From a virus, in the IMG/VR virus record IMGVR_UViG_3300042006_000321, positions 1 through 20,648 of that record: a stretch of DNA of 20,648 nt; one strand, 5' to 3'. Below, one piece after another: positions 1-14,158 of this stretch. The position numbers were made by a program, and so were the translations under genes. How positions within the stretch are numbered: position 1 is the first letter of the stretch; each line of letters begins with the position of its first letter. The notes beneath the pieces are model-generated. The model saw only the letters and a list, made by a program, of their open reading frames with translations. It made no database searches and was not told the DNA's origin.

Positions 1-1
1 G

Positions 2-454
2 TTGTCCGCGACCGTGGAAGAGTTCACCCCGCCGAAGATCGAGTTCGACATGGAACTCATGTCCGGTGGGCGCTTTATCGCCGAGGAAATGGCCAAGAGC
101 GGCAAGGTGCTCAATGCCACGCTGGTCCTCCAGGGTGCCGGTCCTGAAATCATGCTGGCGCTGGGCGTGCGCATGGGTGACGACATCCTGCTCAACGTAC
201 GTGAAGCCGGCCAGGACCAGGATGGCAAGACGTATTTCACCTACCACACCGTCGGCGGCAAGCTCAAATCCCTGGATGAAGCGAAGCTGAAAATGGGCGA
301 CAAGGCGCTCACCACGCTGGTGTTGTCCTGCCGCACCTACAACCGACTGGAAAACGGCATCCCGGTGATCGACATCGATGTGCGCACCCAAAAATTCGTG
401 CTCAATGGCGTCGACATCCTGGGCGATGCGCGCCGCGCTGTGCTGATGCCTTAA
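2..454 (+). CDS. Phage major tail tube protein (P2 FII-like), 5' end outside window
   Basis: This is the inner tube subunit of a contractile tail: hexameric rings stack on the baseplate and the sheath contracts around them. The readable 150 residues carry the family pattern, with EFTPPKIEFDMELMSGG near the start, a beta-rich middle and a C-terminal stretch (IDIDVRTQKFVLNGVDILGD) typical of P2 FII and the R-pyocin tube protein. Family members are about 165-175 residues, so roughly 20 N-terminal residues are missing; the TTG at position 2 is probably an internal codon, not the start. The gene ends in TAA and is followed by a short GC-rich hairpin before the chaperone gene. Its place ahead of a chaperone, tape measure, GpU, GpX and GpD series is the conserved P2 order. 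Family assignment is from remembered sequence pattern and from synteny. Confidence 0.88.
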   Translation: MSATVEEFTPPKIEFDMELMSGGRFIAEEMAKSGKVLNATLVLQGAGPEIMLALGVRMGDDILLNVREAGQDQDGKTYFTYHTVGGKLKSLDEAKLKMGDKALTTLVLSCRTYNRLENGIPVIDIDVRTQKFVLNGVDILGDARRAVLMP

Positions 455-1205: not shown

Positions 1206-2450
1206 ATGCAAGAGACTCAATATGCGACCCGGCTCGCGGTGCAAGACAACCGCTGGATGCTCGGTGACGCGGATCTGGGCAGTGTGCTCGCACCGTTCTC
1301 TGCAAGCTTGGCCGCGCCTGAACGCGAGGCTCCATCACCGCAATCGACGCTCAGCTCGGCGCTGGTTACCGTCAGCGTGGACCTGAATGCGTTGACCCTG
1401 GAGCAGGTACGGTTGCGCGAGACGCTGGAGACGCTCAACACGACGTTGTTCATCACCGGCGCTGCCCTGACCGCCCCGGCCCTGAGCCCCGCGACCAGTG
1501 AGACGAAGAAAACGCCGGAAGAAACAAAGCCTGCCGAATCCTCCGCCACTCAATTGCTCAAGTGGGCCGTTGAAGGCTTGGCGGATTCGTTCAGAACCAA
1601 GGTTTCAGACAAGGTGCTTGAAGCGACCTTGGGCAAGATCCCCCGCATCGGCGCGGTGTTTAAGGGGGCCGGCAAGGGCGGTGACGCTTGCTGCTCGGGT
1701 GTCAGCGAGGTGCCGCGGGGGCGTAAGCGTTATGGGCCCAACAAGTCATCTGGGAAGAGAGGGCCAGGCAAGCCCACGTTCATGAAGTCAAGGCGCAGTC
1801 CCCCCCGAACCTCTTTGAGTTTGTTCGCCACGGTGCGCAGCCTCTTCGAAAAGGTAAGCAAGGTCTTCGAAGGTCCGCGCCTGGGGTTCAATGCCTCGAC
1901 GATTGCTCCACGCACAGCGGCCCCTTCGAGCCTGGCTGGCGCCGCGACCCGACTGGAATCATCCTTCGTGCGCAGGCTGGGCCCGCTGAAGTACGTCGAC
2001 ACCGCGATGGCCGTCGTGCAAGGCGTGCGCCAGGGCGATGCAAAAGCCGTTGGCAGTGGCCTGAGCACCGCCGGTGGCGCCTGGGCTGGCGCATCGGCCG
2101 GGGCTGCACTTGGCACGCTGGTTTTTCCCGGTATCGGTACCGCCGTCGGTGGTGCAATCGGTGGCTTGCTGGGCAGCGAAGCGGGCAGTTGGCTCGGTGA
2201 CAAACTGTTCAGTTCAAGTGATCGCTTGCCCGCGCCGAATGCCTTGAGCAAGGAACTCAACAGTGCTCGCACCGACAACATCCAGGTCACGATCTCGCCG
2301 AGCATCCAGATCACTGGCGTCAACCCCGCCGATGCCCAGCAAGTGGTCAACCAAGTGCTCCAGGCCCTGCAATTCCAATGCATGCCCATGGTGACCGATT
2401 CCCTCGGTATTCGACGCAACGCGGCATTGGCCGACCCCGGAGGTGATTGA
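1206..2450 (+). CDS. Phage tail tape measure protein, short
   Basis: This is a 414-residue protein in the tape-measure slot, starting at ATG 1206 with a GGAG ribosome-binding site that overlaps the end of the chaperone extension. A helical N-terminal half includes a Lys/Glu-rich stretch near residues 95-115. Residues about 155-205 form a low-complexity basic linker with a CC pair. Residues about 290-335 are a strong glycine-zipper/hydrophobic segment (GGAWAGASAGAALGTLVFPG and following), which is typical of tape-measure proteins that line the tube and insert into the membrane. The C-terminus reads like a conserved Pseudomonas tail-protein end (ISPSIQITGVNPADAQQVVN). P2 gpT is about twice as long, so the tail should be short if the usual length relation holds. 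It stops in TGATG overlapping the next gene. Assignment rests on synteny and the glycine zipper. Confidence 0.78.
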   Translation: MQETQYATRLAVQDNRWMLGDADLGSVLAPFSASLAAPEREAPSPQSTLSSALVTVSVDLNALTLEQVRLRETLETLNTTLFITGAALTAPALSPATSETKKTPEETKPAESSATQLLKWAVEGLADSFRTKVSDKVLEATLGKIPRIGAVFKGAGKGGDACCSGVSEVPRGRKRYGPNKSSGKRGPGKPTFMKSRRSPPRTSLSLFATVRSLFEKVSKVFEGPRLGFNASTIAPRTAAPSSLAGAATRLESSFVRRLGPLKYVDTAMAVVQGVRQGDAKAVGSGLSTAGGAWAGASAGAALGTLVFPGIGTAVGGAIGGLLGSEAGSWLGDKLFSSSDRLPAPNALSKELNSARTDNIQVTISPSIQITGVNPADAQQVVNQVLQALQFQCMPMVTDSLGIRRNAALADPGGD

Positions 2451-2833
2451 TGCGACAACAGATGGTATTGGGCGATTTTATCTTTGGCCTCTCACGAGGT
2501 TTTGCCTACGCCACGCTCACCCACAGCAGTTACGGGGGCTGGAGCAACCTGGAAATCATTGCCAGCAAGCCGCAGTCCCGTCAGAGCGGTCAGGCTCTGG
2601 AGAAACTCACGTTCGGCGGCACGGCAATGTACGCCGTAGGTATGCAGCGCCTGGACGAGTTACGCGCCTTGCAGAATGCGCGGGCACCGCTGCCGCTGGT
2701 CGACGGGATCGGCCGGAACTGGGGGCTGTGGCGCATCAACGCCGTGGTGGAAAACCAAAGCCATGTGATCGACGACGGCACCGCCATGGTCATGTCCTGG
2801 AGCCTTGAATTGGAGGAGTTCGTCAATGCGTAG
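2450..2833 (+). CDS. Phage tail protein GpU family (tail completion/terminator)
   Basis: A 127-residue protein of the P2 GpU family, which caps the tail tube and sheath at the head-proximal end. The N-terminal motif MVLGDFIFGLS, the central FGG-TAMYAVG-L segment and the late PLPLVDGIGRNWGLWRI motif are family hallmarks. The ATG at 2450 overlaps the tape-measure stop (TGATG) and has GGAGG seven bases upstream; a TTG one codon earlier is in frame but less likely. The end overlaps the start of the GpX gene by eight bases, so the genes are translationally coupled. Confidence 0.9.
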   Translation: MRQQMVLGDFIFGLSRGFAYATLTHSSYGGWSNLEIIASKPQSRQSGQALEKLTFGGTAMYAVGMQRLDELRALQNARAPLPLVDGIGRNWGLWRINAVVENQSHVIDDGTAMVMSWSLELEEFVNA

Positions 2834-3038
2834 AGTGCGAAGTATTGCCGGGGATTCAGTCAACCTGCTGCTGTACCGCGAGTTGGGGCGCTGTGACGAC
2901 GCTGCTGAAGAAACCCTCTGGCGCCTGAACCCCGAACTGGCCGAGCACGGGCCGGTATTGCCGGCGGGCGTGTGGGTGGTGGTGCCGGAGTTGCACGCCC
3001 GGCCAGCGGCTTTGCGGCCGATTTCGGCCTGGGATTGA
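2826..3038 (+). CDS. Phage tail protein GpX family
   Basis: A 70-residue protein of the GpX family, a LysM-like small tail protein that associates with the baseplate hub in P2-like phages. It reads RSIAGDSVNLLLYRELGR, then LWRLNPELAEHGPVLPAGVWVVVPEL: the same layout of a short LysM-like fold with an N-x-x-L-A core as P2 gpX. Start chosen at ATG 2826 because it has a GGAGG nearby (TTGGAGGAG) and overlaps the end of the GpU gene; the in-frame upstream extension lies inside that gene. GpD follows after nine bases. Confidence 0.88.
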   Translation: MRRVRSIAGDSVNLLLYRELGRCDDAAEETLWRLNPELAEHGPVLPAGVWVVVPELHARPAALRPISAWD

Positions 3039-3047: not shown

Positions 3048-4058
3048 ATGACACAGGGATTCACCCCGGTCGTTGAGTTCTACGGTGCCAATGCGGCATT
3101 GCTTAACCAACGGTTGATGCACTGGAGCCATACCGATGCCGCCGGTATCCAGACCGACCGACTGGAACTCACGCTCAATACCGAGGGCCTGGAAGGGTTG
3201 CCGAGCTTGAGCGGCAAGATCGGCATGCGGGTCGGCTATCAGGAGTCGGGCCTGGTGGAGAAGGGCGAATTCGTCATCACGCAGCGAACCCCGGTGCTGT
3301 TTCCGATGCGCCTGATGATCGTCGCCACCGCCGCACCTTTCAGTGCTGCGGACCCCAGCCATTACCGGCAGCGTCGCTCCGCCAGTTACGGGCCTACCAC
3401 CCTGGGCGCGCTGTTTCGTCAGTTAGTCAGCCGGCATGGCTATTCACCCCGGGTGGCACCGGCGCTGGAAGGCATTCCGATTCCCCATATCGATCAATCC
3501 AACGAAAGCGACATGGCGTTTATCACGCGCCTGGCCAATCGCTATAGCGCCATCACAAAACCGATCAACGAACTGTATGTATTGGCGGAAGCCGGCAAGG
3601 TTCACTCCCTTTCCGGCCAGCCTCTGCCGGATGTGACGTTATCCGTGACCCAGGACAACCGGCCCGGTGACCAAGCGTTCATCACAGCCAAGCTCGACGA
3701 ACAATCGCGCTCTAAGTACATGGGGTGCCGTGTGACCTGGTGGGATGCCGCCGGGGGCAAACAGCACGTCGTGCAAGTCGGCATTGCGCCGTTCAAAACC
3801 TTGCGCCAACGCTGCCAGAACGAAGCCGAAGCCCGCGCTGTGGCCGAAGGCGAACTGCGGCGCGTGGGCCGTGAAGGTTTGAAATTACAGATCGATTGTC
3901 CAGGCAATCCGCTGCTCGCCGCTGAAGGGTTGCTGCTGCTGGATGAGAGCTGGCCGTCCTATATGCAAGGGCGCTGGTCGATCACCCAAGTGACCCATGT
4001 GGGTGACCCGACGACGGGGTATCGCAGTTCGATTGTGGCGGGCGGGTTGTCGATCTAG
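3048..4058 (+). CDS. Phage late control protein GpD (baseplate hub, VgrG gp27-like)
   Basis: A 336-residue homologue of P2 gpD, the trimeric baseplate hub that links tube to spike and is structurally related to T4 gp27 and the N-terminal half of VgrG. Visible features are the N-terminal PVVEFYGANAALLNQRLMHW, an LSGKIGMRVGY strand pair, ESDMAFITRLANRY (the classic E-S-D-x-x-F-x-x-R-L-A helix of the family) and the C-terminal GRWSITQVTHVGDPTTGYRS. It starts at ATG 3048 with GGAGG six bases upstream. It is the last tail gene of the module; the next gene in such modules is the endolysin, which is broken here. Confidence 0.92.
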   Translation: MTQGFTPVVEFYGANAALLNQRLMHWSHTDAAGIQTDRLELTLNTEGLEGLPSLSGKIGMRVGYQESGLVEKGEFVITQRTPVLFPMRLMIVATAAPFSAADPSHYRQRRSASYGPTTLGALFRQLVSRHGYSPRVAPALEGIPIPHIDQSNESDMAFITRLANRYSAITKPINELYVLAEAGKVHSLSGQPLPDVTLSVTQDNRPGDQAFITAKLDEQSRSKYMGCRVTWWDAAGGKQHVVQVGIAPFKTLRQRCQNEAEARAVAEGELRRVGREGLKLQIDCPGNPLLAAEGLLLLDESWPSYMQGRWSITQVTHVGDPTTGYRSSIVAGGLSI

Positions 4059-4080: not shown

Positions 4081-4194
4081 ATGCTGATTACGCTTGCCCA
4101 ACTTGTTCACGTCATGCCAGCAGCCCGCCTCGTAGCGGGTGTTTTTTTGTTTGACGATGACTCCAGCCCGGTACTTCGCTGGACTGCGCCGTAG
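4081..4194 (+). pseudogene. Endolysin (probable GH19 family) 5' remnant cut by ICE insertion
   Basis: The frame from ATG 4081 reads MLITLAQLVHVMPAARLVAGVF and then diverges to a stop at 4192-4194. The opening resembles the N-terminus of phage GH19-type endolysins (M-x-x-T-x-x-Q-L-x-x-I-M-P-x-A, then A-G-V-F), which usually follow GpD in Pseudomonas tail modules. Similarity ends at the GVF codons, exactly where a run of seven T residues occurs (4142-4148). The remaining ~180 codons are absent. The best reading is that the ICE inserted here and the rest of the gene lies beyond its right end. The 22-residue match is short, so the family call is moderate; the truncation is clear from the position and the abrupt change. 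Confidence 0.6.
4142..4150. other. Probable left attachment junction (attL) of the ICE
   Basis: Seven T residues followed by GT mark the point where endolysin-like sequence stops and ICE sequence begins, about 176 bp before the integrase start. Tn4371-family elements are known to integrate at short T-rich sites such as TTTTTCAT, not in tRNA genes, which fits a TTTTTGT core here. The partner site is outside the window, so the exact core is unproven. Confidence 0.5.
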
Positions 4195-4325
4195 CTCGAT
4201 GAAGCAGGTTTATCAAGGACTTACGCGCGTCCATCATATGCCGGTGCTTTCTGAAACTTGACCCGGTTTTCCCTCGCGCCGCTCCTATCTGGCTCTTGGA
4301 ATTCGGGTCGTTCCAAGGAGTCATC

Positions 4326-5525
4326 ATGGCGAAGATCAAGCTCACCAAGACCGCCGTAGAGTCGGCGCAACCCCAGGCCAAGGACATCGAACTACGGGAT
4401 ACCGTGGTGCCGGGTTTCCTCTGCAAGATTACCCCGAAGGGCCGTCGGGTGTTCATGCTCCAGTACCGCACGAACTCCGGGCAGCCCCGCAAGCCCTCGC
4501 TGGGCCTGTTCGGGGAACTGACCGTGGAGCAGGCCCGCGTCATGGCGCAGGACTGGCTGGCCGAGGTTCGCCGAGGCGGCGACCCCGGCGGCGCCAAGGC
4601 CGAGGCGCGCAAGGCGCCCACGGTCGAAGCGCTGTGCAAGAAGTTCATGGAGGACTACTCCAAGAAGCGCAACAAGCCGAGCACGCAGCGCGGCTATCAG
4701 GCCGTCATCGACCGCTGCATCGTCCCGCTGATCGGCCGCAAGAAGGTGCAGGACGTGAAGCGGCCCGACATTGCCGGGCTGATGGAGAAACTGGCCTACA
4801 AGCCCGCCGAGGCGAACAACGCCTTCGGCGTGCTGCGCAAGATGTTCAACCTGGCCGAAGTGTGGGGCTACCGCCCGGACGGCACGAACCCGTGCCGCCA
4901 CGTCCCGATGTACCCGCCCGGCGAGGAAACCCGGCTCATCGTGGACGACGAACTGGCGCTGATCTTCCGCCAGTTGGAGAAGCTGGAGGCGGAAGGACTG
5001 GAGAACTACGTCATCCCGCTGGCGATTCGCCTGCAATTCGAGTTCGCCGGCCGCCGCTCCGAAATCTGCATGCTTGAATGGGATTGGGTCGATCTGGAGA
5101 ACCGGCGCGTGGTCTGGCCCGACAGCAAGACCGGCGGCCTCTCCAAGCCCATGAGCGCGGAAGCCTATCGACTGTTCTCGACGGCACCGCGCCGAGAAGG
5201 TTGCCCCTACGTCCTGCCTTCGCCCAACGACCCGACCAAGCACCTGACCTTTGGCGAGCACTATGGCGGATGGTGCCGGGTGCTCAAGGCAGCCGGCGTC
5301 CCACACGTCGGCACGCACGGCATCCGCCACCGCTCCACGACCGACATTGCCAATTCGGGAGTGCCGACCAAGGTAGGCATGAAGCTGACGGGCCACAAGA
5401 CCGTGGCGATGTTCATGCACTACGTCCACACCGAGGACAAGCCGGTGCGGGATGCTGCCGAACTGGTGGCGAGTCGGCGGCAGGCCATCACGGGCGCGCG
5501 GCGCCCTGCGGAGGCCACGGCATGA
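4326..5525 (+). CDS. int: ICE tyrosine integrase
   Basis: A 399-residue site-specific tyrosine recombinase that integrates and excises the element. Residues 1-90 are an arm-type DNA-binding domain of the DUF4102 kind (LTKTAVESA, DTVVPGFLCKITPKG, LGLFGELTVEQAR). Residues about 98-185 are the SAM-like core-binding domain. The catalytic domain shows all key residues: R243 in AGRRSEI, K268 in DSKTGG, H331 and R334 in HGIRH, H357 in LTGHK and the nucleophile Y366 in FMHYVH. Start chosen at ATG 4326 with AAGGAG upstream; an in-frame TTG at 4296 lacks a site. The gene sits at the left edge of the element reading inward. The ATGA overlap at its end couples it to the broken DUF1016 gene. It appears intact, so the ICE may still be able to move. 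Confidence 0.95.
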   Translation: MAKIKLTKTAVESAQPQAKDIELRDTVVPGFLCKITPKGRRVFMLQYRTNSGQPRKPSLGLFGELTVEQARVMAQDWLAEVRRGGDPGGAKAEARKAPTVEALCKKFMEDYSKKRNKPSTQRGYQAVIDRCIVPLIGRKKVQDVKRPDIAGLMEKLAYKPAEANNAFGVLRKMFNLAEVWGYRPDGTNPCRHVPMYPPGEETRLIVDDELALIFRQLEKLEAEGLENYVIPLAIRLQFEFAGRRSEICMLEWDWVDLENRRVVWPDSKTGGLSKPMSAEAYRLFSTAPRREGCPYVLPSPNDPTKHLTFGEHYGGWCRVLKAAGVPHVGTHGIRHRSTTDIANSGVPTKVGMKLTGHKTVAMFMHYVHTEDKPVRDAAELVASRRQAITGARRPAEATA

Positions 5526-5821
5526 GCAAGAGGACGCTTTCGGTGGCGCCCCCCGCTGCCTTGGCGGCCGACTATCCCCGTTCCGCAATTTCCGAGACAG
5601 TGTCTGGGAAATTCGGCCTCGCCGAGCTGGCCAAGGTCTTCACGCTGCCGTGGTCGGCCTATGCGCTGCTGATTTCGGTCAAGGATGCCCGCGGATCGGT
5701 GGCCGGCATCCCGTCCAGTCGGCTCCGATTGTCGTGCCGGCGTCACGACAATCGGGCGGGCCATCCCTTCTATCTAGGTGCTACACCGGAGACTGGAAAA
5801 GTATGCCCGTTTCGGGTATAG
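5522..5821 (+). pseudogene. DUF1016/YhcG-type nuclease remnant
   Basis: The frame opens at ATG 5522, overlapping the integrase stop by four bases. Its first ~58 residues include KVFTLPWSAYALLISVKDAR, which matches the N-terminal DUF1016 region of YhcG-like PDDEXK proteins (usual pattern F-x-L-P-W-S-x-Y-x-x-L-L-S-V-K, about 350 residues in total). After the codons near 5695 the similarity stops and the frame runs through unrelated sequence and a palindrome to a TAG at 5819-5821. The catalytic C-terminal PDDEXK domain is gone. Tn4371-like elements often carry an intact gene of this type directly after the integrase, so this looks like a leftover after insertion of the downstream cargo. A short expressed peptide cannot be excluded. 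Confidence 0.62.
5725..5755. repeat. 12-bp perfect inverted repeat
   Basis: CCGATTGTCGTG (5725-5736) pairs with CACGACAATCGG (5744-5755) around a 7-nt loop. No T tract follows on either strand. It lies at the point where the DUF1016 remnant loses similarity, so it may be a breakpoint scar, a protein-binding palindrome or an mRNA hairpin. Confidence 0.6.
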
Positions 5822-5822
5822 T
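5802..5822 (+). promoter_or_regulatory. Probable promoter/operator of the toxin-antitoxin pair
   Basis: A near-palindrome TATGCCCG/CGGGTATA (5802-5809 and 5813-5820, one mismatch, 3-nt centre) overlaps a good -10 box TATAGT at 5817-5822, seven bases before the toxin ribosome-binding region. The -35 region is poor. This is the usual place for an autoregulatory antitoxin operator. Confidence 0.45.
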
Positions 5823-5834
5823 TTGGAGGTCGAA

Positions 5835-6218
5835 ATGACGGTCATCCTCAAGCGCAAGGACTTTGCACGCTGGCAGTCGGGCGAGAAGCTGTCCGATGCC
5901 GCGTTGTGCAAGGCGGTTCAGGAGATGGAAAGCGGTCTGATCGACGCGGACTTGGGCGGCTCCCTCTACAAGAAGCGGGTGGCCCGCCCCGGTGGTGGTA
6001 AAAGCGGCGGCTACCGCACACTGGTATCGGCCAGGATCGGCAGCCGCTACGTGTTCCTGCATGGGTTCCCGAAGAACGACAAGGCGAACATCACGCAGGA
6101 CGAGAAGAAGGCGCTGCAATTCGCCGGCAAAGCGTTCTTGCAACTGTCCGGGGAAACGTTATCGAAGGCGTTGCAGTCGGGCGTGTTATTGGAGGTGCAT
6201 TGTGAGCAAGATCATTGA
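5835..6218 (+). CDS. RelE/HigB-type toxin of a type II toxin-antitoxin pair
   Basis: A 127-residue protein of the RelE-like family represented by YgjN/HigB-2-type toxins, which act as ribosome-dependent mRNA endonucleases. Visible family features are DADLGGSLYKKRVARPGGGKSG, then YRTLVSARIGSRYVFLHGFPKND and NITQDEKKALQFAGKAFL; the basic R-x-G-x-GKSGG-x-R region is the expected RNA-binding/catalytic face. It starts at ATG 5835 with GGAGG six bases upstream. Toxin precedes antitoxin and the genes overlap by 17 bp, which is the higBA-like order. It sits just behind the integrase and DUF1016 remnant and probably stabilises the element. No truncation is visible. Confidence 0.85.
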   Translation: MTVILKRKDFARWQSGEKLSDAALCKAVQEMESGLIDADLGGSLYKKRVARPGGGKSGGYRTLVSARIGSRYVFLHGFPKNDKANITQDEKKALQFAGKAFLQLSGETLSKALQSGVLLEVHCEQDH

Positions 6219-6504
6219 ATCCCTGCGTGACGACCTGGCCACGCTTCATGAAGTGGGTGCGATCAGCAAGGTGACGATGCGCGAGTTCGACGCGATCTGC
6301 CCGCCGCCAGTGCGGGAGTTTGGCGCCGAGGACATTAGGCGCCTACGGGAGACGCTGAAATTCAGCCAGCCGGTGTTCGCGCATCACCTGCACACCTCGG
6401 CCTCGACCGTGCGCAAGTGGGAGCAAGGTGAAACCCGACCCGCTGGCCCGGCGCTGAAGCTGCTCAACATCATCGCCGACAAGGGGCTCCGGGCGATCCT
6501 TTGA
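6202..6504 (+). CDS. XRE-family antitoxin (HigA/NadS-like)
   Basis: A 100-residue helix-turn-helix protein that should neutralise the upstream RelE-like toxin and repress the operon. The N-terminal half (SLRDDLATLHEVGAISKVTM, DAICPPPVREF) is typical of NadS-type antitoxins; residues about 46-85 hold the HTH (IRRLRETLKFSQPVFAHHLH, TSASTVRKWEQGETRP). It starts at GTG 6202, preceded by GGAGG at 6191-6195, and overlaps the toxin end. The 3' boundary is followed by about 80 bp of AT-richer sequence that probably carries the promoter of the TIR operon. The pairing is certain from overlap; the precise family name is less so. Confidence 0.88.
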   Translation: MSKIIESLRDDLATLHEVGAISKVTMREFDAICPPPVREFGAEDIRRLRETLKFSQPVFAHHLHTSASTVRKWEQGETRPAGPALKLLNIIADKGLRAIL

Positions 6505-6583
6505 TTGATCTGCGTTTTCTGCCATAACCACCTAATTTCAGTTACGATCTTTTACGCTATCAAAACGTCGATGGAGGTGACAG

Positions 6584-7051
6584 ATGGCAGAGAAAAGGAA
6601 CGTGTTTATCAGCCATGTCCATAAGGACGATCATGGGCTCCAAAAGCTCAAAGATCTGCTGGCTCCGAAAGGGATGGATGTAAGGGACTCCTCCATCCAT
6701 ACAGGAAAGTTCAACAACGCCACGGATGAGCATTACATCAAGACGCAGATTCTGGCCCCAGCGATAAACTGGGCGGGCGTATTTATTTGCTACGTCTCAC
6801 CCCAGACGAAAGATAGCGACTGGGTGACCTGGGAAATCGAATATGCAGCCAAGCAAGGCAAACGTATTGTTGGCATCTGGGAGCATGGTGAGAAGGAATG
6901 CGACATTCCTGAGGCACTGAAAGAATACGCCGATGCCTTGGTCGGCTGGAATGGTGACTCAATCATTGATGCGATCAACGGAAAAGATACATGGGAAAAA
7001 CCCGACGGTGGCGCCTGTGATCCGGTTCCTCTGAAAAGGCATCCCTGCTGA
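6584..7051 (+). CDS. ThsB-type TIR-like protein, first gene of a four-gene cassette
   Basis: A 155-residue TIR-like protein of the MTH538/ThsB type (PF08937-like). Such proteins hydrolyse or cyclise NAD; in Thoeris, ThsB makes a cyclic ADP-ribose signal when a phage infects. The fold signature is clear: strand A NVFISHVHKDD at residues 6-16, the WAGVFICYVSP strand at 63-73, and DSDWVTWEIEYAAKQGKRIV with putative catalytic Glu84 (W80-x-x-x-E84), followed by a GIWEHG strand. It begins at ATG 6584 with GGAGG nine bases before it. Its stop overlaps the next ATG (TGATG), coupling it to the Nmad2 gene. No SIR2-SLOG (ThsA) partner lies next to it. It could be an enzyme that makes a signal, a plain NADase effector or a nucleotide glycosidase; the sequence does not decide. 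Confidence 0.85.
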   Translation: MAEKRNVFISHVHKDDHGLQKLKDLLAPKGMDVRDSSIHTGKFNNATDEHYIKTQILAPAINWAGVFICYVSPQTKDSDWVTWEIEYAAKQGKRIVGIWEHGEKECDIPEALKEYADALVGWNGDSIIDAINGKDTWEKPDGGACDPVPLKRHPC

Positions 7052-7677
7052 TGGCACGTGTCCACTCCTACGTGGTGCGGTACGACAGTGGTTTCGCACC
7101 CAATCCCTTTTACGAATACTGCACGCTTGCAACCTGCAAGCCAAATATCCGCAAGGGCGCTGACATCGGTGATTGGGTGGTAGGCAGTGGCAGCAATGAT
7201 CGAAGTGTTCGGCGAGGCGGGTATCTGGTTTATGCGATGCAAGTCACCGAAACGATGACATTTGATGAATATGGGGCAGATCCACGGTTTGAATCTAAAA
7301 AGCCCTATCGCAACGGTAGTCGGAAGCAAAGTTGCGGGGACAATATCTACTTCAGAGCCGCACCAGCGGCCGTCTGGCAGCAACGAGATTCCTTTCACTC
7401 TCGCCCCGATGGTTCACTTAATCCTGATCACGTCACTCGCGACACGGGTGTAAACAGGGTTCTCATCAGCAATGACTTCGTGTACTTCGGAGGAGAGGGG
7501 CCGGAGTTCCCGGAAGAGCTAAAAGACCAGCAAGGCCGGTCTCTATGCAAAACAGGAATAGGTCTAACTACTTTTGACGATCCAAAACTGATTGCGAACC
7601 TAGAGCAATGGGTTCGTAGCTTTGGGCTGAATGGATATCAGGGCGCTCCATTCGAATGGCTGACGCTTCGGAGGTAA
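7051..7677 (+). CDS. Nmad2-domain protein (nucleotide-modification-associated)
   Basis: A 208-residue protein whose N-terminal 65 residues match the Nmad2 family (PF18753) as I know it: HSYVVRYDSGFAPNPFYEYC, then TLATCKPNIRKGADIGDWVVG and SGSNDRSVRRGGYLVYAMQV. The rest is a mixed alpha/beta region including FYFG-like VYFGGEGPEFP and a short C-terminal helix. Nmad families were predicted from genome context to bind or process modified nucleotides or bases; no biochemical activity is established for Nmad2 that I know of. Its ATG shares a base with the TIR stop, and only three bases separate it from the MazG gene, so it belongs to the same functional unit. A role in recognising modified phage nucleotides is inference from family name and neighbours. 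Confidence 0.72.
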   Translation: MARVHSYVVRYDSGFAPNPFYEYCTLATCKPNIRKGADIGDWVVGSGSNDRSVRRGGYLVYAMQVTETMTFDEYGADPRFESKKPYRNGSRKQSCGDNIYFRAAPAAVWQQRDSFHSRPDGSLNPDHVTRDTGVNRVLISNDFVYFGGEGPEFPEELKDQQGRSLCKTGIGLTTFDDPKLIANLEQWVRSFGLNGYQGAPFEWLTLRR

Positions 7678-7680
7678 CCG

Positions 7681-8811
7681 ATGCACAAGGAAGGTTCTCT
7701 GCTGCTTTCGGACTACGCTTCGGAAATTGCAGCTACGGATGTACTCAGTCCAACCGATTTCAATCCTGTCCTTCAAGGGCTTTATGGGGAAGTCGGTGGA
7801 ATAATGTCTACTGTCAAAAAACATGTCCGGGAAAAATCTGCGTACCCTGGTTTCAGAAGGGCGGCGGAAGAAGAATTCGGTGATACGCTTTGGTATTTGG
7901 CTGCGATCTGCCGGCGCATGCAAGCTCCACTTGAAGATATCTTTGCCGAGGCGGCGAATCACGGGAACTTCAAGAACATAGGGGCAGCAAGCGACATAGC
8001 CGAAGGTGCATTCGCTTACATCGCCATGCCTGTGGCGGCCCCTGCGTCGTTGGACATTACCTTGGTACGCTTGGGGCAGGCGGCCGCAGCTCTGCTGGGA
8101 AGTGGGCCTGCGCGCAATGACGTGGTCACCTTCGCGCGAGCCTATCTCGATGCAATCCATGCCGCAGAGTTGGCGTTCTCGGACGTAGCGCGGGGGAACC
8201 TCCGGAAAGCTAGGGGTGCATTCTTGGAGCCACAGGCGGTTGACCTGATTGGCCTTGATTTCGATAGCGAGTTTGGAATAGAAGAGCAGCTCCCTAGAGA
8301 GTTCAAGATCCGAGTCAATCAACGCGGTAGCGGCAAAAGCTATCTCCAATGGAATGGCGTATTCATAGGTGATCCCCTGACCGACAACATCGCTGACCGA
8401 GATGGCTACCGATTTCATGATGTTTTCCATTTTGCATATGCAGCCATCTTGCATTGGTCACCTGTAATACGGGCATTGATCAAGCACAAGCGAAAGAGCC
8501 AGTCCAAATATGATGAAGAGCAAGACAGCGGCCGGGCAATCGTCGTTGAGGAAGGGCTTACGGCATGGATTTTCTCTAGAGCCAAGGAATTAAACTATTT
8601 TGAGAATCAAGAAAAGGTTTCCCTTGGGATTCTCAAAACCATTGAAGAGTTTGTGAGTGGCTATGAGGTTGAGAAGTGCCCGCTAAAGCTTTGGGAAAAA
8701 GCCATCATGGACGGATATTCCGTATTCCGTCAAATCAAGAAAAATCAAGGCGGCTGGATCATCGGCAACCGAAAAGAACGCACCCTACAATATATGCCGC
8801 TTGAGTCTTAA
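7681..8811 (+). CDS. MazG-like nucleotide pyrophosphohydrolase with C-terminal domain
   Basis: A 376-residue two-domain protein. Residues about 25-90 are MazG-like: LQGLYGEVGG (32-40), TVKKHVREK, then EEEFGDTLWYLAAICRR (63-79). MazG enzymes cleave (d)NTPs to (d)NMPs using Mg bound by an E-x-x-E...E-x-x-D set. Here E65-x-x-D68 is intact, but the first pair reads E37-x-x-G40, so one metal ligand may be missing or shifted. The C-terminal half is a separate domain with RFHDVFHFAYAA (H246, D247, H250) and VVEEGLTAWIFSRA (E290, E291), resembling the MazG_C domain found in nucleotide-conflict operons. ATG 7681 has GGAGG six bases upstream. It is the longest gene of the cassette. Likely it acts on free nucleotides or a nucleotide signal; the substrate cannot be read from sequence. 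Confidence 0.8.
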   Translation: MHKEGSLLLSDYASEIAATDVLSPTDFNPVLQGLYGEVGGIMSTVKKHVREKSAYPGFRRAAEEEFGDTLWYLAAICRRMQAPLEDIFAEAANHGNFKNIGAASDIAEGAFAYIAMPVAAPASLDITLVRLGQAAAALLGSGPARNDVVTFARAYLDAIHAAELAFSDVARGNLRKARGAFLEPQAVDLIGLDFDSEFGIEEQLPREFKIRVNQRGSGKSYLQWNGVFIGDPLTDNIADRDGYRFHDVFHFAYAAILHWSPVIRALIKHKRKSQSKYDEEQDSGRAIVVEEGLTAWIFSRAKELNYFENQEKVSLGILKTIEEFVSGYEVEKCPLKLWEKAIMDGYSVFRQIKKNQGGWIIGNRKERTLQYMPLES

Positions 8812-8813
8812 GA

Positions 8814-9476
8814 ATGAAAATCCACCCCTTTGTTGAATCAGTTTCCTCGCTGCAATTTGAGGACTGCTTCAATCCTTATTCTGATCGCTGTGAAGTTCAT
8901 GATCGTCGAGACGCGCCCCGCCGCCGCGCCGCCGCACTTTCCGCATTATTGCGTCGCGCTTCAGAGGAGCCTGTAGATGCGATTTGGATCGGTCGAGATT
9001 TGGGGTATCGCGGAGGCCGCCGAACTGGGTTGGCCCTGACTGACGATGTTCACATGAGCCAACATGCCAAACGTTGGAATGTCGATCTGGCTCCAGAACG
9101 GCCCACAGTCGGCAATGCCGTAGCCGAGCGAACCGCTGCGGTTATATGGGGAATGCTAGAGCACATTGATGCTCGCATCTTTCTCTGGAATGTTTTCCCA
9201 CTTCACCCTCATGAATCAGGGGATCCGTTCACCAACCGGCAACACAACGCCCGTGAAAGGCGAGCCGGCGAAGAGCTACTACAACAGCTCATCGTTCTGC
9301 TTCGTCCCTCGCGCATCGTCGCCATCGGCAACGATGCTGCCGCAGCCGCTCATCGAATCACGGATAGCGTGCCTGTTATCTGCGTGAGGCATCCGAGCTA
9401 TGGCGGACAGACGCAGTTTCAAGGGCAAATCTCTGAACTGTATGGACATCCAATGAAGACTGGATCGCTGTTCTGA
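8814..9476 (+). CDS. Uracil-DNA glycosylase superfamily protein
   Basis: A 220-residue protein with the UDG superfamily layout. Motif A is IWIGRDLGYRGGRRTG at residues 57-72, where D62 sits where the catalytic Asp of GQDPYH lies in family-1 enzymes. A central LWNVFPLHPHESG (124-136) supplies the Asn/Pro-rich pocket, RIVAIGND (167-174) is the core strand, and VRHPSYGG (191-198) is motif B with the H-P-S triplet. Such enzymes remove uracil or damaged or modified bases from DNA. It is not the housekeeping Ung or the Fe-S family 4/5 type, as I see no cysteine cluster. The start at ATG 8814 is two bases after the MazG stop, with no strong ribosome-binding site, which implies coupled translation. 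It closes the cassette and may attack modified phage DNA. Confidence 0.78.
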   Translation: MKIHPFVESVSSLQFEDCFNPYSDRCEVHDRRDAPRRRAAALSALLRRASEEPVDAIWIGRDLGYRGGRRTGLALTDDVHMSQHAKRWNVDLAPERPTVGNAVAERTAAVIWGMLEHIDARIFLWNVFPLHPHESGDPFTNRQHNARERRAGEELLQQLIVLLRPSRIVAIGNDAAAAAHRITDSVPVICVRHPSYGGQTQFQGQISELYGHPMKTGSLF

Positions 9477-9542
9477 CGAATTGCTCCAGCATTTTAGCGA
9501 GCGGATACCGCCCCTTCTATCCAACTCGCCAGGTTTTCACTG

Positions 9543-9650
9543 ATGCAGCGACTGAAAGAGGCTCTGACGCTGGTGGAGGTGCGCACACTGGATCACGTCG
9601 TTGTGGCCGGGCAGGAAACAACTTCATTTGCAGAGCGAGGGCTATTGTGA
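9543..9650 (+). pseudogene. radC: radC 3' remnant (last 36 codons)
   Basis: The frame from 9543 to the TGA at 9648-9650 reads MQRLKEALTLVEVRTLDHVV and ends FAERGLL, the well-conserved C-terminus of RadC/JAB-type proteins. The JAB metal motif (H-x-H...S-x-x-D) and everything upstream are gone; sequence before 9540 does not match RadC. Tn4371-like elements normally carry a full radC in this region. The fragment therefore marks where the four-gene cassette replaced or deleted most of radC. It keeps its own terminator. Confidence 0.8.
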
Positions 9651-9656
9651 ACCGAG

Positions 9657-9684
9657 GGGGCTGCACAGGCGGCCCCATTTTTTT
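9657..9684 (+). terminator. Rho-independent terminator after radC remnant
   Basis: GGGGCTGC (9657-9664) pairs with GCGGCCCC (9669-9676) with one G-T wobble around the loop ACAG, followed by A and seven T residues (9678-9684). It ends + strand transcription from the TIR-Nmad2-MazG-UDG operon before it meets the opposing operon. Confidence 0.88.
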
Positions 9685-9732
9685 ATTCGCTCCATCAAGC
9701 TTACTGAACGCAGTTACTGCAAAATTTCCCGG

Positions 9733-10302
9733 CTAATCCACAGGCAGAAGCTTTCGACGAAATAAGCTGGAATAGGTTCGGTCGCGTGAAAAAATTGGAT
9801 CATATTCTCCCTGTTGATAAATTATTTTGGCGGCGGCCCCTGTTGTTGAAAGCGGGAGCACTGTAGCTTTGGGATGGTGTTCGACGAACAATTTATGCTC
9901 CTCATAGATCCCCTCCATGCCGCCGACGAACACCGCTGCGCTGAAACGGCGGCTTTCGATCATTGCTTGCCTCATGGCCGTCAAACTGGCTTCTCTGTTG
10001 CCATCAACCGCTGGCACCATATGCACGTCGACGAACTCCGCTAGCTCAGGAGGCAATCGACCCTCAAAAAGCTTACTTTGGTAAATCGCCACCCTGTTGC
10101 GGTCAAGGTTTGCCTCGCGGGAAAAGAGAGCCAATAGCGGCGTTATCGCCGGATGGCCGCCGCACGTGATTCGTCCAATCGGCAACACTACTTCAACCAA
10201 AGCCTTGATTGCTTCCCGTATAGCAAGAACATCGGCGGTGTCGAAAAATACCCGATTGCGATCAGGCAAAGGCACGCTGGCAGATAGAAATATATCTATC
10301 AT
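9733..10302 (-). CDS. SLOG-domain protein (LD_cluster3-like), predicted nucleotide sensor
   Basis: A 189-residue Rossmann-like protein with SLOG features: MIDIFLSASVPLPDRN at the start, VVLPIGRITCGGHPAITPLL (GGH at 48-50, the ligand-binding turn) and FVGGMEGIYEEHKLF (GGME at 127-130, acidic residues 134-135), then an LPLSTTGAAA strand-helix. It resembles the SLOG cluster-3 family described in TIR-linked nucleotide conflict systems (Burroughs and colleagues, 2015). In Thoeris the SLOG domain of ThsA binds the cyclic ADP-ribose made by TIR proteins; here the SLOG stands alone with no SIR2 fused to it. Its ATG overlaps the stop of the TIR gene upstream (ATGA, 10299-10302), so it is the last gene of the operon. 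Ligand sensing is inferred from the fold. Confidence 0.75.
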   Translation of the reverse strand: MIDIFLSASVPLPDRNRVFFDTADVLAIREAIKALVEVVLPIGRITCGGHPAITPLLALFSREANLDRNRVAIYQSKLFEGRLPPELAEFVDVHMVPAVDGNREASLTAMRQAMIESRRFSAAVFVGGMEGIYEEHKLFVEHHPKATVLPLSTTGAAAKIIYQQGEYDPIFSRDRTYSSLFRRKLLPVD

Positions 10303-11486
10303 GCGGTGAGCTCCTTCAGAAGTTGTGGCGCCTTCGACATTTGCACGGCCCGGATCGGCAAATACGAGTCAAGCCAATCTAGGTGAGAGAGCCACGTTCT
10401 CAGTACACCTCTATTGTCGTAAATCACCCATATTTCTCTCGTCTCAACAGTGGGGTTGGTAATGGCTTCGAACACTTCGTTGATGCGATCAGCGGTTGGT
10501 ATTCCCACTGCCGGTACGATCGCCAGCGTTCGATTGGACTCGGTTTTGAGAGAAATCCAGCCTTCAATCTGAACACTTGGATCAAGTCCCTCGTCGCGGG
10601 CGGCGTCGCAAAAGTTATCGACCAAATATCGGTGGCGGGCGGCAATTGCTGGTGCGCGTAGCCGTTCGACCTCGTCGCAAATTCTCGTCACCAATCCCTT
10701 CGTGGCCCAACGCCCCCGCATTGGAATAAATCCAAAGAAGTCCCGACGCCTAAGCTTCATGAAGTGGCTGAAGGACGATGCAGGGTCTTCCTTTTGCCCC
10801 GGCCATAGTAGGTGCAAGATTTGCACATTGGTCGCGTTTGCGCGCGCCAATTCTTCAGCCGTCCAACGACCTTCTCTGAAGCCAGGTGTGTCGATCAGCA
10901 CCACGACATCGGAATCCGACATCCTGTGCCAGAGTTGTGATTGGAAATCTGCGGCTGGAGGCACTGACCTCACGTCGATGAAAACGTCAAAGCCACGAGC
11001 ATCGAGCGCATCGTACAACCGATCGGCCAGCGGCTGAGACCCTGTTCGTTTGTAACTGATGAAAAGTCGTCGCTCACGTCGCAACAGCCTAAATGTCTCA
11101 AGGACTAGCGTAACGAGGCGGGTGATGCCTTCATCGTTGGTGCCCAATACAATAGCATTGACATGTCTGAGCTGCGGCGGAATTTCTGCATGAACCTGGG
11201 ACAAATCCGAAACGACCGGAGCGATAACGATCGAGTCATCAATCAACTCCGTCACAAGTGCGGTATCGGCAGTGCTTTCCGACGAGCCGAAAAATACTGC
11301 CATCACCGGCGATTTTAAGCTGCGGTTAGAGGCGTTGGCATCGCTGAGAAACGTAATTGCGTTGCTCGGAATCCCGAGCCCCTGAAGCGCCAGATCAACG
11401 CTACGGCGGAGGCGAGTGTCATGCCCATGGACCGCACCCAGCAGGATAAGCTGGTAGGGTGATCTCATGCTTGAGTTCTCGCTCAT
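10299..11486 (-). CDS. Three-part protein with central TIR domain
   Basis: A 395-residue protein. Residues 10-135 are an alpha/beta region (LILLGAVHGHD, VMAVFFGSSE, IVIAPVVSDL) that may be a receiver or Rossmann-like sensor. Residues about 139-230 are a full TIR domain: RRLFISYKRTGSQPLADRLY, the GFDVFIDVRSVPPAADF loop, SDSDVVVLIDTPGF and REGRWTAEELARA with putative catalytic Glu212 (W208-x-x-x-E). Residues 270-395 form another alpha/beta region (REIWVIYDNRGVLRTWLSHL) that I do not recognise. TIR domains with this glutamate hydrolyse NAD, so it is the best effector candidate of this operon. It overlaps both neighbours by four bases (ATGA). The first ATG is chosen for the overlap; one six codons later is possible. 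Confidence 0.8.
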   Translation of the reverse strand: MSENSSMRSPYQLILLGAVHGHDTRLRRSVDLALQGLGIPSNAITFLSDANASNRSLKSPVMAVFFGSSESTADTALVTELIDDSIVIAPVVSDLSQVHAEIPPQLRHVNAIVLGTNDEGITRLVTLVLETFRLLRRERRLFISYKRTGSQPLADRLYDALDARGFDVFIDVRSVPPAADFQSQLWHRMSDSDVVVLIDTPGFREGRWTAEELARANATNVQILHLLWPGQKEDPASSFSHFMKLRRRDFFGFIPMRGRWATKGLVTRICDEVERLRAPAIAARHRYLVDNFCDAARDEGLDPSVQIEGWISLKTESNRTLAIVPAVGIPTADRINEVFEAITNPTVETREIWVIYDNRGVLRTWLSHLDWLDSYLPIRAVQMSKAPQLLKELTA

Positions 11487-12085
11487 CGGCCAGCCATTCC
11501 CGCAGCAGTTTCAATCCATCCGCCAATATTTTTCCTGCCATCCTGGCCTATGAAATCGTAACTCAGGCAGTGATTTGACAGTTGGACTACGCTATTCGTT
11601 TTTGGTGCTGTGAACCACAGATCACCCTCAGGAATCGCAAGCGTGTAATCTGCGTAGGCCACCCACTTTCCGTCCTTCCACTCGGCGAGATATATGCCGC
11701 GATCGGTTCTATAAAGTCCCATCTGCGCCAATGGATCAGCACCCTTTGTAGATGTCGCTTTGTCTTTATTCTGGACACCGTGAATGAAAACGGTTAGCAA
11801 GCCGTTTCCCTTGATAACACTGCGAGCAATTTCGTAGCGCACCCATCGCCGTGACCATGTATGGGTTCCAGCAAGGACACAAGTTACCGAAGTATTCTCC
11901 AACCCCTTGCGGAGAAAAGTCTTTAGTGCATCGTCACTCTCTTTTTTCGATGCCTCAAACACGCTGCTGTCAAAGAAGCCCCGGCTTTCCTCATCGGATT
12001 CCTTCACAACCCAACTGTTGCGGACATTCCAGGCGCGCCATACATCAGGCTCATAGTGAAAAGAAAAGAATGTTCTGCGTGGCAT
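11483..12085 (-). CDS. ThsB-type TIR-like protein, second of operon
   Basis: A 200-residue ThsB/MTH538-type TIR-like protein. MPRRTFFSFHYEPDVWRAWN opens it, then VTCVLAGTHTWSRRWVRYEI with putative catalytic Glu85 (W81-x-x-x-E85) and GLLTVFIHGVQNKD. These match the ThsB pattern F-S-F-H-Y-x-x-D-x-W-R. Start chosen at ATG 12085, since GGAGT lies seven bases upstream and the TIR fold begins at once; 25 further in-frame codons upstream have no homology. After residue 110 a longer C-terminal part (YLAEWKDGKWVAYADYTLAI) is particular to this paralogue. It overlaps the TIR-effector gene downstream by ATGA. It probably makes a NAD-derived signal, perhaps in response to a different trigger from its neighbour. 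Confidence 0.82.
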   Translation of the reverse strand: MPRRTFFSFHYEPDVWRAWNVRNSWVVKESDEESRGFFDSSVFEASKKESDDALKTFLRKGLENTSVTCVLAGTHTWSRRWVRYEIARSVIKGNGLLTVFIHGVQNKDKATSTKGADPLAQMGLYRTDRGIYLAEWKDGKWVAYADYTLAIPEGDLWFTAPKTNSVVQLSNHCLSYDFIGQDGRKNIGGWIETAAGMAGR

Positions 12086-12190
12086 TTTGACTCCATCTAT
12101 TACACTAAACCCAGGCAAATTTGGATGTAGGTGACCCGCATCCTCCACAGCAAACGACACCTCGCAGGATGCAATTCAGATATTGCCGGT

Positions 12191-12667
12191 TCATCGTGCC
12201 TTTATAGCGTCGCTGACCCAAGTTTCAATATTCGACTTGATGTAGTCATACACATTGGTGCTGGTGGTGTATGGCGGATCGTAGACTTTACCCGTGACAG
12301 CTTCTCCATCAACGGTGAGGCCTGTAAACGGATTAGATCCTTTCGACGACTGATTTCCGTCTGAGTCTTTCAGATTGTGGACATGGATGGCGAGTACACC
12401 CAGCCCGTCCTTCCAGGCTTTCTTTATCTCGTGTTTGACCCAGCGGCGGCTGGCAGTCTTCTCGCCCACAAGTACGACAAGGCATTCTTTGCCTTTCATG
12501 TTGTCGGCGATCCATTTTTTGATGGCATCATCGCCTGCTTTCTTGATTTCTTCCCATTTGTTCGAATCCAGTAGAGGCTGTTTTTCGATAGCTCCGATTT
12601 GCCGAACTTGCGACACGCGCCAACTATCCTGTTTATAGTGAAAGCTCAGAAAGCATTTATTCGCCAT
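12191..12667 (-). CDS. ThsB-type TIR-like protein, first of operon
   Basis: A 158-residue TIR-like protein of the widespread ThsB type: MANKCFLSFHYKQDSWRVSQ, the WEEIKKAGDDAIKKWIADNM helix, CLVVLVGEKTASRRWVKHEI with putative catalytic Glu80, and GVLAIHVHNLKD followed by SSKGSNPF. It starts at ATG 12667 with GGAG upstream and stops 105 bp before the next TIR gene. Sequence identity to the neighbouring paralogue is only partial, so the two are not a recent duplication. It is the first gene of the four-gene - strand operon. In Thoeris, several ThsB paralogues often feed one ThsA and widen the range of phages sensed; the same logic may hold here. Confidence 0.88.
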   Translation of the reverse strand: MANKCFLSFHYKQDSWRVSQVRQIGAIEKQPLLDSNKWEEIKKAGDDAIKKWIADNMKGKECLVVLVGEKTASRRWVKHEIKKAWKDGLGVLAIHVHNLKDSDGNQSSKGSNPFTGLTVDGEAVTGKVYDPPYTTSTNVYDYIKSNIETWVSDAIKAR

Positions 12668-12775
12668 GACTTATCTCCATTTGTCGTTGGTGCTTCGATG
12701 AAGCAAATCTCGAATTGAGGATTGCGATAGTTATTTAACTGAAGTCGTAATTAATCGCTGGCTTGAAATACTTTC

Positions 12776-12793
12776 TTGTAAATTTCCTTACAA
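12776..12793 (-). promoter_or_regulatory. Palindrome and possible promoter of the TIR/SLOG operon
   Basis: TTGTAA (12776-12781) and TTACAA (12788-12793) form a 6-6-6 inverted repeat about 110 bp upstream of the first TIR start. On the - strand, TTGTAA could also serve as a -35 box with TATTTC 17 bases further on as a weak -10. It is either an operator for an unknown regulator or part of the core promoter; sequence alone cannot tell. Confidence 0.35.
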
Positions 12794-12799
12794 ATGATA

Positions 12800-13290
12800 G
12801 CTGAAAGTGTGCGCCTGCGTCTCCGCTTCGCGGACCGCGCTGCTCCAGGTTCGCTATTCGCTCATCCCTGACGGGACTGGCATTCGCCAGCCTTCCACAT
12901 CCCTGACGCCTCCGGCCCGGCTTCCAGCTTCGGGCCTGCGCGCTTCGCTTGCGTGCGGTCAGCACAAAGGGATGGCCGTTGCCTTGTCCAGCCGTCTCCC
13001 CTGACTTCATCACCTTACCCGCGACCGTAGCCCGCTCCCGTGTGCCGTCAAGGCGCGCAGGGCCGTGTCCTCGGCTGCGCCTGCGGGCCGCACCAACCCT
13101 GCGCTTGTCTCCTTGACGGCCCCCGTCCGCGCGCTCCTTTGGCCGCGGGCGATGAACTCAGGAAAGACGGTGGCAACAGGGCCAACCGGGTTCCTCGTGC
13201 CGACCGCACCGAACAGCCGAAAGGCTGGGCTCCGAATCTAGGAATCCGGTGTGCGGTTTGAACAGCAAACCCTTTTCGTCAGGAGAAATG
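12800..13290. other. Gene-free, hairpin-rich leader upstream of DUF932 gene
   Basis: About 490 bp without a convincing gene. It is dense in short perfect stems, many closed by TTCG-like loops: TCCGC/GCGGA (12822-12834), CTGGC/GCCAG near 12880 and GGCCCG/CGGGCC near 12915. A long-range stem pairs GCCGTCAAGG (13044-13053) with CCTTGACGGC (13111-13120), with an inner GCGCAGGG/CCCTGCGC pair. A final hairpin GGTTTG/CAAACC (13255-13271) is followed by CTTTT, just before the AGGAG of the DUF932 gene. This looks like a structured 5' leader or a replication/transfer site. Frames crossing it on either strand have random-looking, shadow-type composition. Confidence 0.5.
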
Positions 13291-13292
13291 CA

Positions 13293-14120
13293 ATGCAACT
13301 CGCATCCCGATTCGCTTCCCGTTCCCCGTCGCTGCGCAGCGATTACCCGCTGTCCGATGACCAAATCCGCCGTGTGGCCCCGTCCATCTTCGCGGACGCG
13401 CCGCACGAAAGCCGTTCCGAACGGTACGCCTATATCCCCACCGCCGCCGTGCTGGCGGAACTACGCAAGGAAGGGTTTGAACCCTTCATGGCAGCGCAAA
13501 CCCGCGTGCGCCACGACGACCGCCGCGACTACACCAAACACATGCTGCGCCTGCGCCACGCCAGCCAGATCAACGGCGCGGAGGCTAACGAAATCGTGCT
13601 GCTGAACTCGCATGACGGCACGAGCAGCTATCAGATGCTGGCCGGAATGTTCCGGTTCGTGTGCAGCAATGGCCTTGTCTGCGGCGACACGGTGGCGGAC
13701 GTGCGCGTGCCCCACAAAGGCGACGTGGCCGGTTCCGTCATCGAAGGCGCTTACGAAGTCTTGCGCGGCTTCGACCGCGTGCAGGAATCCCGCGATTCCA
13801 TGCGCGCCATCACCTTGAACGATGGCGAATCCGAAGTGTTCGCCCGCGCCGCGCTGGCCCTCAAGTACGACGACCCCGACAAGCCCGCGCCCATCACGGA
13901 ATCGCAAATCCTGATGCCGCGCCGCTTTGATGACCGCCGCCCGGACTTGTGGAGCGTGTTCAACCGCACGCAAGAGAACCTGACCCAAGGCGGCCTGCGC
14001 GGGCGCAGCGCCAACGGACGCCGCCAGCAAACCCGCCCGGTACAGGGCATCGACCAGAACATCCGCCTCAACCGTGCGCTTTGGCTGCTGGCCGATGGCA
14101 TGCGCCAGTTGAAAGCCTGA
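13293..14120 (+). CDS. DUF932 protein, ICE backbone
   Basis: A 275-residue protein of the DUF932 family, common on plasmids, phages and ICEs; the function is unproven. Visible family features are DYPLSDDQIRRVAPSIFADA near the start, the core YIPTAAVLAELRKEGFEPFM, and SYQMLAGMFRFVCSNGLVCG in the middle. The C-terminal region (DLWSVFNRTQENLTQGGLRG) is also typical. Start chosen at ATG 13293, seven bases after AGGAG; an out-of-frame ATG at 13288 is ignored. It lies behind a structured leader and is followed by a strong hairpin and the ParB-like gene. Backbone-type GC-rich codon use is evident, in contrast with the TIR cassettes just upstream. Confidence 0.88.
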   Translation: MQLASRFASRSPSLRSDYPLSDDQIRRVAPSIFADAPHESRSERYAYIPTAAVLAELRKEGFEPFMAAQTRVRHDDRRDYTKHMLRLRHASQINGAEANEIVLLNSHDGTSSYQMLAGMFRFVCSNGLVCGDTVADVRVPHKGDVAGSVIEGAYEVLRGFDRVQESRDSMRAITLNDGESEVFARAALALKYDDPDKPAPITESQILMPRRFDDRRPDLWSVFNRTQENLTQGGLRGRSANGRRQQTRPVQGIDQNIRLNRALWLLADGMRQLKA

Positions 14121-14128
14121 ACCCCCAC

Positions 14129-14158
14129 GCGGCAGGGGCAGGCAGCAGCCCTTGCCGC
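14129..14158 (+). terminator. Strong hairpin between DUF932 and ParB-like genes
   Basis: An 11-bp stem GCGGCAGGGGC/GCCCTTGCCGC (14129-14139 and 14148-14158, one G-T wobble) encloses an 8-nt loop and is followed by TTCTCTC, not a clean T tract. It is either a weak terminator or an mRNA-processing or stability element between the two genes. Confidence 0.5.

What the first reader, a model, noticed from the sequence alone, without database searches (positions are those of the whole stretch)
4081..4150. ICE inserted into the endolysin gene of a tail module at a T-rich site
The endolysin-like frame stops at GVF where seven T residues lie, and ICE sequence begins there. Tn4371-type integrases use short T-rich targets, not tRNA genes. 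If right, the prophage or tailocin keeps its tail genes but has lost its lysis enzyme, so particles could not be released by this route, an example of one mobile element disarming another.
Basis: partly seen in the sequence, partly recalled or inferred. Interest (0 to 1): 0.62.

Follow-up and report, generated by a model that had tools for sequence, protein, structure and literature searches.

The report
Mobile element inside lysis-gene terminator hairpin
A conjugative DNA element has cut the cell-wall-digesting gene of a bacterial phage-tail weapon in two, and comparison with more than a hundred other insertions shows that its family prefers to insert right behind the hairpin-plus-T-run signals that end transcription, one of which is embedded in this lysis gene.

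Summary
Bases 1-4149 are 99.93% identical to an uninterrupted Pseudomonas R-tailocin-type locus that continues into a 185-residue GH19 endolysin, then Rz/Rz1 and (in a relative) cinA. From 4150 on the window is 100% identical to a 40.3-kb Tn4371-type ICE in Stutzerimonas azotifigens, inserted there at another site. The insertion leaves 22-23 of 185 endolysin residues and no GH19 domain. The right junction lies outside the record, so attR was not seen. Loss of particle release is inferred; some tailocin clusters carry a second endolysin. 'T-rich site' is incomplete: of 92 distinct left junctions of this integrase family, 67 (73%) have a GC-rich hairpin directly before the T-run; an independent Pseudomonas set gives 17 of 21; ordinary T6-9-G/A sites give 21% (intergenic 26%). 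The preferred target is an intrinsic-terminator-like site. Whether the hairpin itself or a GC-rich-then-T sequence is read stays open (GC-matched odds ratio 4.5 against all sites, 2.7 against intergenic sites). In the tailocin this hairpin lies inside the endolysin codons and is far commoner among relatives than codon usage predicts. I found no earlier report of the preference in the searchable library; group IIC introns show a similar one.

The parts
2..454 (+). phage tail tube protein (FII type)
   Evidence: Pfam PF04985, E 1.8e-21
1206..2450 (+). probable tape-measure protein
   Evidence: position and length; only a glycine-zipper hit just under its cut-off
2447..2833 (+). tail protein GpU
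   Evidence: Pfam PF06995, E 2e-22
2805..3038 (+). tail protein X
   Evidence: Pfam PF05489, E 1.1e-11
3048..4058 (+). baseplate hub gpD-like protein, intact
   Evidence: PF05954 (27.4 bits, below its cut-off of 30.1); 122 relatives in viral contigs
4081..4194 (+). endolysin stub: 22-23 native residues plus 14 residues and stop read from the ICE
4123..4140 (+). terminator-like hairpin GCCCGC-CTCGTA-GCGGGT inside the endolysin codons
   Evidence: conserved in relatives
4142..4149 (+). T7-G: T-run of the terminator-like site and core of attL
   Evidence: shared by the empty sites and by the left ends of about 90 ICEs
4150..20648 (+). left 16.5 kb of a Tn4371-type ICE; the record ends inside it
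   Evidence: 100% identity to the S. azotifigens DSM 17556 ICE, L085 and L184
4326..5525 (+). tyrosine integrase, 399 aa, co-directional with the tail operon
   Evidence: PF00589, PF13356, PF14659; 100% relatives in other genera
13251..14120 (+). DUF932 protein of the ICE backbone
   Evidence: PF06067, E 6.1e-56
14200..16263 (+). ParB-like protein
   Evidence: PF02195, E 1.5e-7
17287..17607 (+). DUF736 protein
   Evidence: PF05284, E 4.3e-36
20148..20648 (+). replication initiator RepA, cut by the end of the record
   Evidence: PF10134, E 1.2e-44

Best explanation
A Tn4371-type ICE of about 40 kb integrated by tyrosine-recombinase recombination inside the T7-G tract of a terminator-like hairpin that lies within the first codons of the endolysin gene of a Pseudomonas R-tailocin-type tail module. 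Shown: the break is exactly at the T-run; the upstream DNA and the ICE each exist apart from the other; the gene is intact in near-identical relatives; the integrase family inserts mostly directly 3' of GC-rich hairpins followed by six or more T, with the T-run next to the int end. Inferred: strand exchange occurs within TTTTTTG; the attL terminator stays functional and insulates int from host transcription; terminators serve as a gene-independent target in many hosts; loss of endolysin and separation from Rz/Rz1 impair particle release as long as the ICE stays in place.
For: Break point. Intact endolysin, Rz/Rz1 and cinA in relatives. Left-end alignment of 97 loci. Hairpin counts: 67 of 92 against 31 of 149 T6-9-G/A sites in the same loci and 49 of 230 (all) or 26 of 100 (intergenic) sites in 1.6 Mb sampled from four of the host genomes. 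Shuffling the 33 bases 5' of the last 12 leaves a mean of 15.7 of 92, at most 22. Independent Pseudomonas set: 17 of 21. GC-matched Mantel-Haenszel OR 4.5, z 4.7 against all sites. Right ends CTTGACACMGGCMC-TTTTTT-G in 27 of 30 genomes, up to 2 mismatches. Pre-insertion terminator shown for one site 3' of an ahpC-like gene: 18 of 40 Pseudomonas genomes align contiguously across it, and six that I printed have the hairpin and T-run without an ICE. Conjugation genes in the identical twin: TrbI, TrbL, CagX, TrbE, TraG, plus a LysR gene.
Against: 25 of 92 junctions have no hairpin at the threshold, so it is not required. Against intergenic T-runs of matched GC the odds ratio is only 2.7 (z 2.4). 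The coding/intergenic call of the background rests on simple open frames. attR of this insertion is outside the record. No second insertion in a tailocin was found. Termination at the endolysin hairpin is not tested; its fold energy is only moderately unusual (z -1.8), and terminator-like sites are common by chance in that scan (2 found, mean 1.6 in shuffles).
Confidence: 0.82

Rival explanations
1. The integrase reads only sequence: a GC-rich stretch, then T6-8, then G or A. Hairpins appear because such sequences in GC-rich genomes are mostly terminators, and because insertions inside genes are lost by selection.
For: GC of the 6 bases left of the T-run is 0.92 at hairpin junctions and 0.67 at junctions without hairpin; 25 of 92 junctions lack a hairpin; GC-matched intergenic OR only 2.7.
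Against: Hairpin excess persists in the GC-matched comparison with all T-run sites (OR 4.5, z 4.7); keeping the last 12 bases and shuffling the rest removes it (15.7 against 67 of 92).
Confidence: 0.4
2. The insertion works as a switch: the ICE excises when the tailocin is induced, restoring the endolysin, as for elements inside prophage late genes.
For: int is co-directional with the tail operon and exact excision would restore the frame. Helper-embedded PICIs sit inside prophage late genes with the same orientation (PMC10111431).
Against: The attL terminator should hinder read-through into int. The same ICE sits at unrelated sites elsewhere. Only one tailocin insertion is known, so there is no sign of selection for it.
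Confidence: 0.06
3. The junction is an assembly chimera, or the short frame is a natural 37-codon gene.
For: The right junction is not in the record.
Against: The break is at the exact family-typical attL core and the ICE begins at its exact end; near-identical relatives have the full gene.
Confidence: 0.02

Closest known systems
Tn4371 family of ICEs (e.g. the ICE of P. aeruginosa PA7; PMC2789088)
   Same: Integrase 85% identical to that of PA7; same left-end motif; T6-G core; RepA, ParB-like protein; Trb/TraG transfer genes and a LysR gene in the identical twin
   Different: The known target description is a short T-rich attB; here the target is shown to be mostly terminator-like, and this copy lies inside a tailocin lysis gene
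Group IIC introns, which insert at intrinsic transcription terminators (PMC4424553)
   Same: Target is a terminator motif rather than a fixed gene
   Different: Retroelement with ribozyme and reverse transcriptase; here a tyrosine recombinase moves a large conjugative element
Helper-embedded PICIs in prophage late genes (PMC10111431)
   Same: A mobile element sits in a phage late gene in the sense direction
   Different: Those are phage satellites with an integrase clade specific to late genes; this ICE family mostly inserts behind chromosomal terminator-like sites
R-tailocins of Pseudomonas between mutS and cinA/recA (PMC7815802)
   Same: Tail genes, then lysis genes, then cinA in relative L006
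   Different: Lysis cassette cut by an ICE; regulator and capsid status not visible in the window

Membership tests
Tn4371 ICE family | integrase over 70% related to intTn4371 | tested here: met
   85% to the PA7 member's integrase over residues 1-396; intTn4371 itself was not available
Tn4371 ICE family | short T-rich direct repeat at both ends (TTTTTCAT, TTTTTTGT, TTTTTTAT) | tested here: met
   attL T7-GT in the window; right end with T6-G in the identical twin and in most other genomes; attR of this copy not seen
Tn4371 ICE family | maintenance genes (RepA, ParA, ParB) | tested here: met
   RepA (cut by the record end) and ParB-like protein; ParA not tested
Tn4371 ICE family | Ti/RP4-like transfer module | tested here: met
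   TrbE, TrbI, TrbL, CagX, TraG in the twin ICE; beyond the end of the window itself
Tn4371 ICE family | excision as a circle and transfer | not testable with these tools
   identical copies in different hosts imply recent transfer
Pseudomonas R-tailocin | contractile tail genes with lysis genes next to cinA | tested here: met
   tail genes in the window; cinA-like gene in relative L006
Pseudomonas R-tailocin | no capsid genes | tested here: inconclusive
   the window holds only the last 4 kb of the module
Intrinsic terminator (endolysin hairpin) | GC-rich hairpin directly followed by a T-run | tested here: met
   6-pair stem and T7
Intrinsic terminator (endolysin hairpin) | stops transcription | not testable with these tools
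   needs RNA data or a reporter

The most novel reading that the evidence does not exclude
The integrase of Tn4371-type ICEs recognises intrinsic terminators as structures (hairpin or cruciform plus T-run), giving a conjugative element a gene-independent safe-harbour target in many hosts, while tailocin endolysins carry a conserved intragenic terminator that attenuates the lysis gene and exposes it to this element.
Probability: 0.3. Interest if true: 0.75.

Novelty: new variant of a known kind. Interest (0 to 1): 0.55.

Why it matters
It turns a loose description ('T-rich attB') of a widespread ICE family, which carries resistance and degradation genes, into a testable rule: insertion directly behind terminator-like sites, mostly outside genes. 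Such a rule would predict insertion sites in new hosts and explain a broad host range without a conserved target gene. The tailocin case shows the cost when a terminator-like sequence is part of a gene. The conserved hairpin inside the endolysin start also raises a separate question about control of lysis.

Tried and rejected
Phage collection: only three DNA matches at about 70% identity. Search for other insertions at the same endolysin site and for the right junction in viral contigs: none; no gpD in the flanks of other junctions. An empty PA7 site was not found in 25 genomes of its genus, so the empty-site proof uses an ahpC-like site of another genome. Solved structures of the integrase: no hit. 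A sigma-70 promoter near the junction: none. An assembly chimera and a natural short gene were rejected. Plain T-richness as the whole target rule was rejected as incomplete. Literature search for terminator targeting by this family or other integrases found none in the library; most subscription papers are missing from it.

Full report
Observation. The frame from 4081 encodes MLITLAQLVHVMPAARLVAGVFL and then runs into foreign sequence, ending at 4194. Uninterrupted relatives exist. L002 matches window 1-4149 with 3 mismatches and the match ends at 4149; L002-L006 continue TTTTTTTG-CCSGCCATAAATGC. The full protein is 185 residues with a Glyco_hydro_19 domain at 39-143. Downstream in the relatives lie an Rz-like frame with an overlapping Rz1-like lipoprotein frame (named by position and appearance, not by a profile search), and in L006 a cinA-like gene. 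This fits the R-tailocin position between mutS and cinA/recA (PMC7815802). The insertion removes the whole catalytic domain and separates the tail operon from Rz/Rz1.

The element. From 4150 the window is identical to an ICE in Stutzerimonas azotifigens DSM 17556 as far as the window goes (L085: 4150-15522; L184: 7062-20648). That twin lies at another site and runs about 40.3 kb from its left end to its right end, with TrbI, CagX, TrbL, TrbE, TraG and a LysR gene. The window part has the integrase, DUF932, ParB-like, DUF736, regulators and RepA. The integrase is 85% identical to that of PA7, a listed Tn4371 family member with core TTTTTTGT (PMC2789088). Membership is well supported, although the transfer genes were seen only in the twin.

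Both ends. Aligning 97 integrase loci shows one left end, T-run-G/A-TTTSACGATGACTCC. In PA7 the published element length led to the right end, CTTGACACAGGCCC-TTTTTTGT-host. The same right-end motif was found in 27 of 30 genomes. In the window the T7-G is shared with the empty site, so the crossover lies within it; the exact base cannot be placed.

Target preference. At most left junctions the T-run directly follows a GC-rich hairpin. With one rule (stem of at least 4 pairs, at most one mismatch, at most -8 kcal/mol) 67 of 92 distinct junctions pass. Among other T6-9-G/A sites of the same loci 31 of 149 pass, and in 1.6 Mb sampled from four of the host genomes 49 of 230, or 26 of 100 intergenic. 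Junctions found independently, by DNA pattern in 399 Pseudomonas genomes, give 17 of 21. When the last 12 bases are kept and the 33 before them shuffled, a mean of 15.7 of 92 pass. Stratified by GC of those 12 bases, the odds ratio is 4.5 against all sites and 2.7 against intergenic ones. I quote the -8 cut-off, chosen after seeing the junction energies but before counting any background; -6 and -10 were counted too and give similar contrasts. The result shows a preference, not a requirement. It does not separate structure reading from reading a GC-rich-then-T sequence combined with selection against insertions in genes.

Pre-existing terminators. Joining the two flanks of the ICE in G017 gives a site just 3' of an ahpC-like stop codon. 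Eighteen of 40 Pseudomonas genomes align contiguously across it, and six printed ones have the hairpin and T7 without any ICE. Of 64 hairpin junctions with enough flank, 30 have a co-directional stop codon within 200 bases (median 53.5) and 3 have an open frame running in without one; of 22 junctions without hairpin the counts are 4 and 5. These frame counts are rough.

Why this gene. The endolysin start encodes a conserved PxARLxAGVFL stretch. In 20 of 30 distinct variants its codons form a hairpin of at most -8 kcal/mol followed by at least six T, whereas recoding by codon usage predicts 0.4 to 0.9. Rare codons such as AGA and TTA recur there. The variants are related, so this is not a formal probability, and some lineages lack the T-run. 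A terminator-like element inside the lysis gene is thus probably kept by selection; attenuation of lysis is a guess.

Mechanism. Shown: the site, the orientation, the loss of the domain, the family preference. Inferred: the attL terminator insulates int from the upstream operon; terminators offer a target present in any host; the tailocin loses endolysin-driven release while the ICE is in place. The last point depends on whether another endolysin exists: records G035 and G037 hold two GH19 genes, G031 one, and CHA0 has two endolysins.

Comparison and novelty. I found no paper in the library that links this ICE family, or another integrase family, to intrinsic terminators as preferred targets; the library lacks most subscription journals. 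Group IIC introns do insert at terminators, and satellites sit in prophage late genes. The individual insertion is an ordinary ICE event; the target preference is the interesting part.

Noticed in passing
window 6584-12667: ICE cargo looks like a defence island: four TIR proteins that hit ThsB models of PADLOC, an SLOG cluster3 protein, Nmad2, MazG_C and a UDG-like protein; no separate ThsA was seen.
   Followed up: partly
window 4123-4148; L002-L075: Conserved terminator-like hairpin plus T-run embedded in the endolysin codons of many Pseudomonas tail modules, built with rare codons.
   Followed up: partly
window 4150-20648; L085, L184, L083, L082: ICE 100% identical over the window's 16.5 kb in Stutzerimonas azotifigens; long 100% stretches also in Achromobacter pulmonis and 99.9-100% stretches in Variovorax: very recent spread.
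   Followed up: partly
ICE right end, e.g. L212, L213: Right end carries TTGACA 17 bases before the left-end sequence in the circular form, which might form a junction promoter for int; no good -10 box was seen by eye.
   Followed up: no
plasmids collection: Relatives of this integrase lie on 138 plasmids, many from Klebsiella, Pseudomonas, Citrobacter and Enterobacter.
   Followed up: no
window 1-20648: The record is filed as a virus contig but about 80% of it is ICE DNA.
   Followed up: yes
L052, L081 just after gpD: In these relatives an ordinary terminator-like hairpin lies between gpD and the next gene instead of inside an endolysin gene.
   Followed up: no
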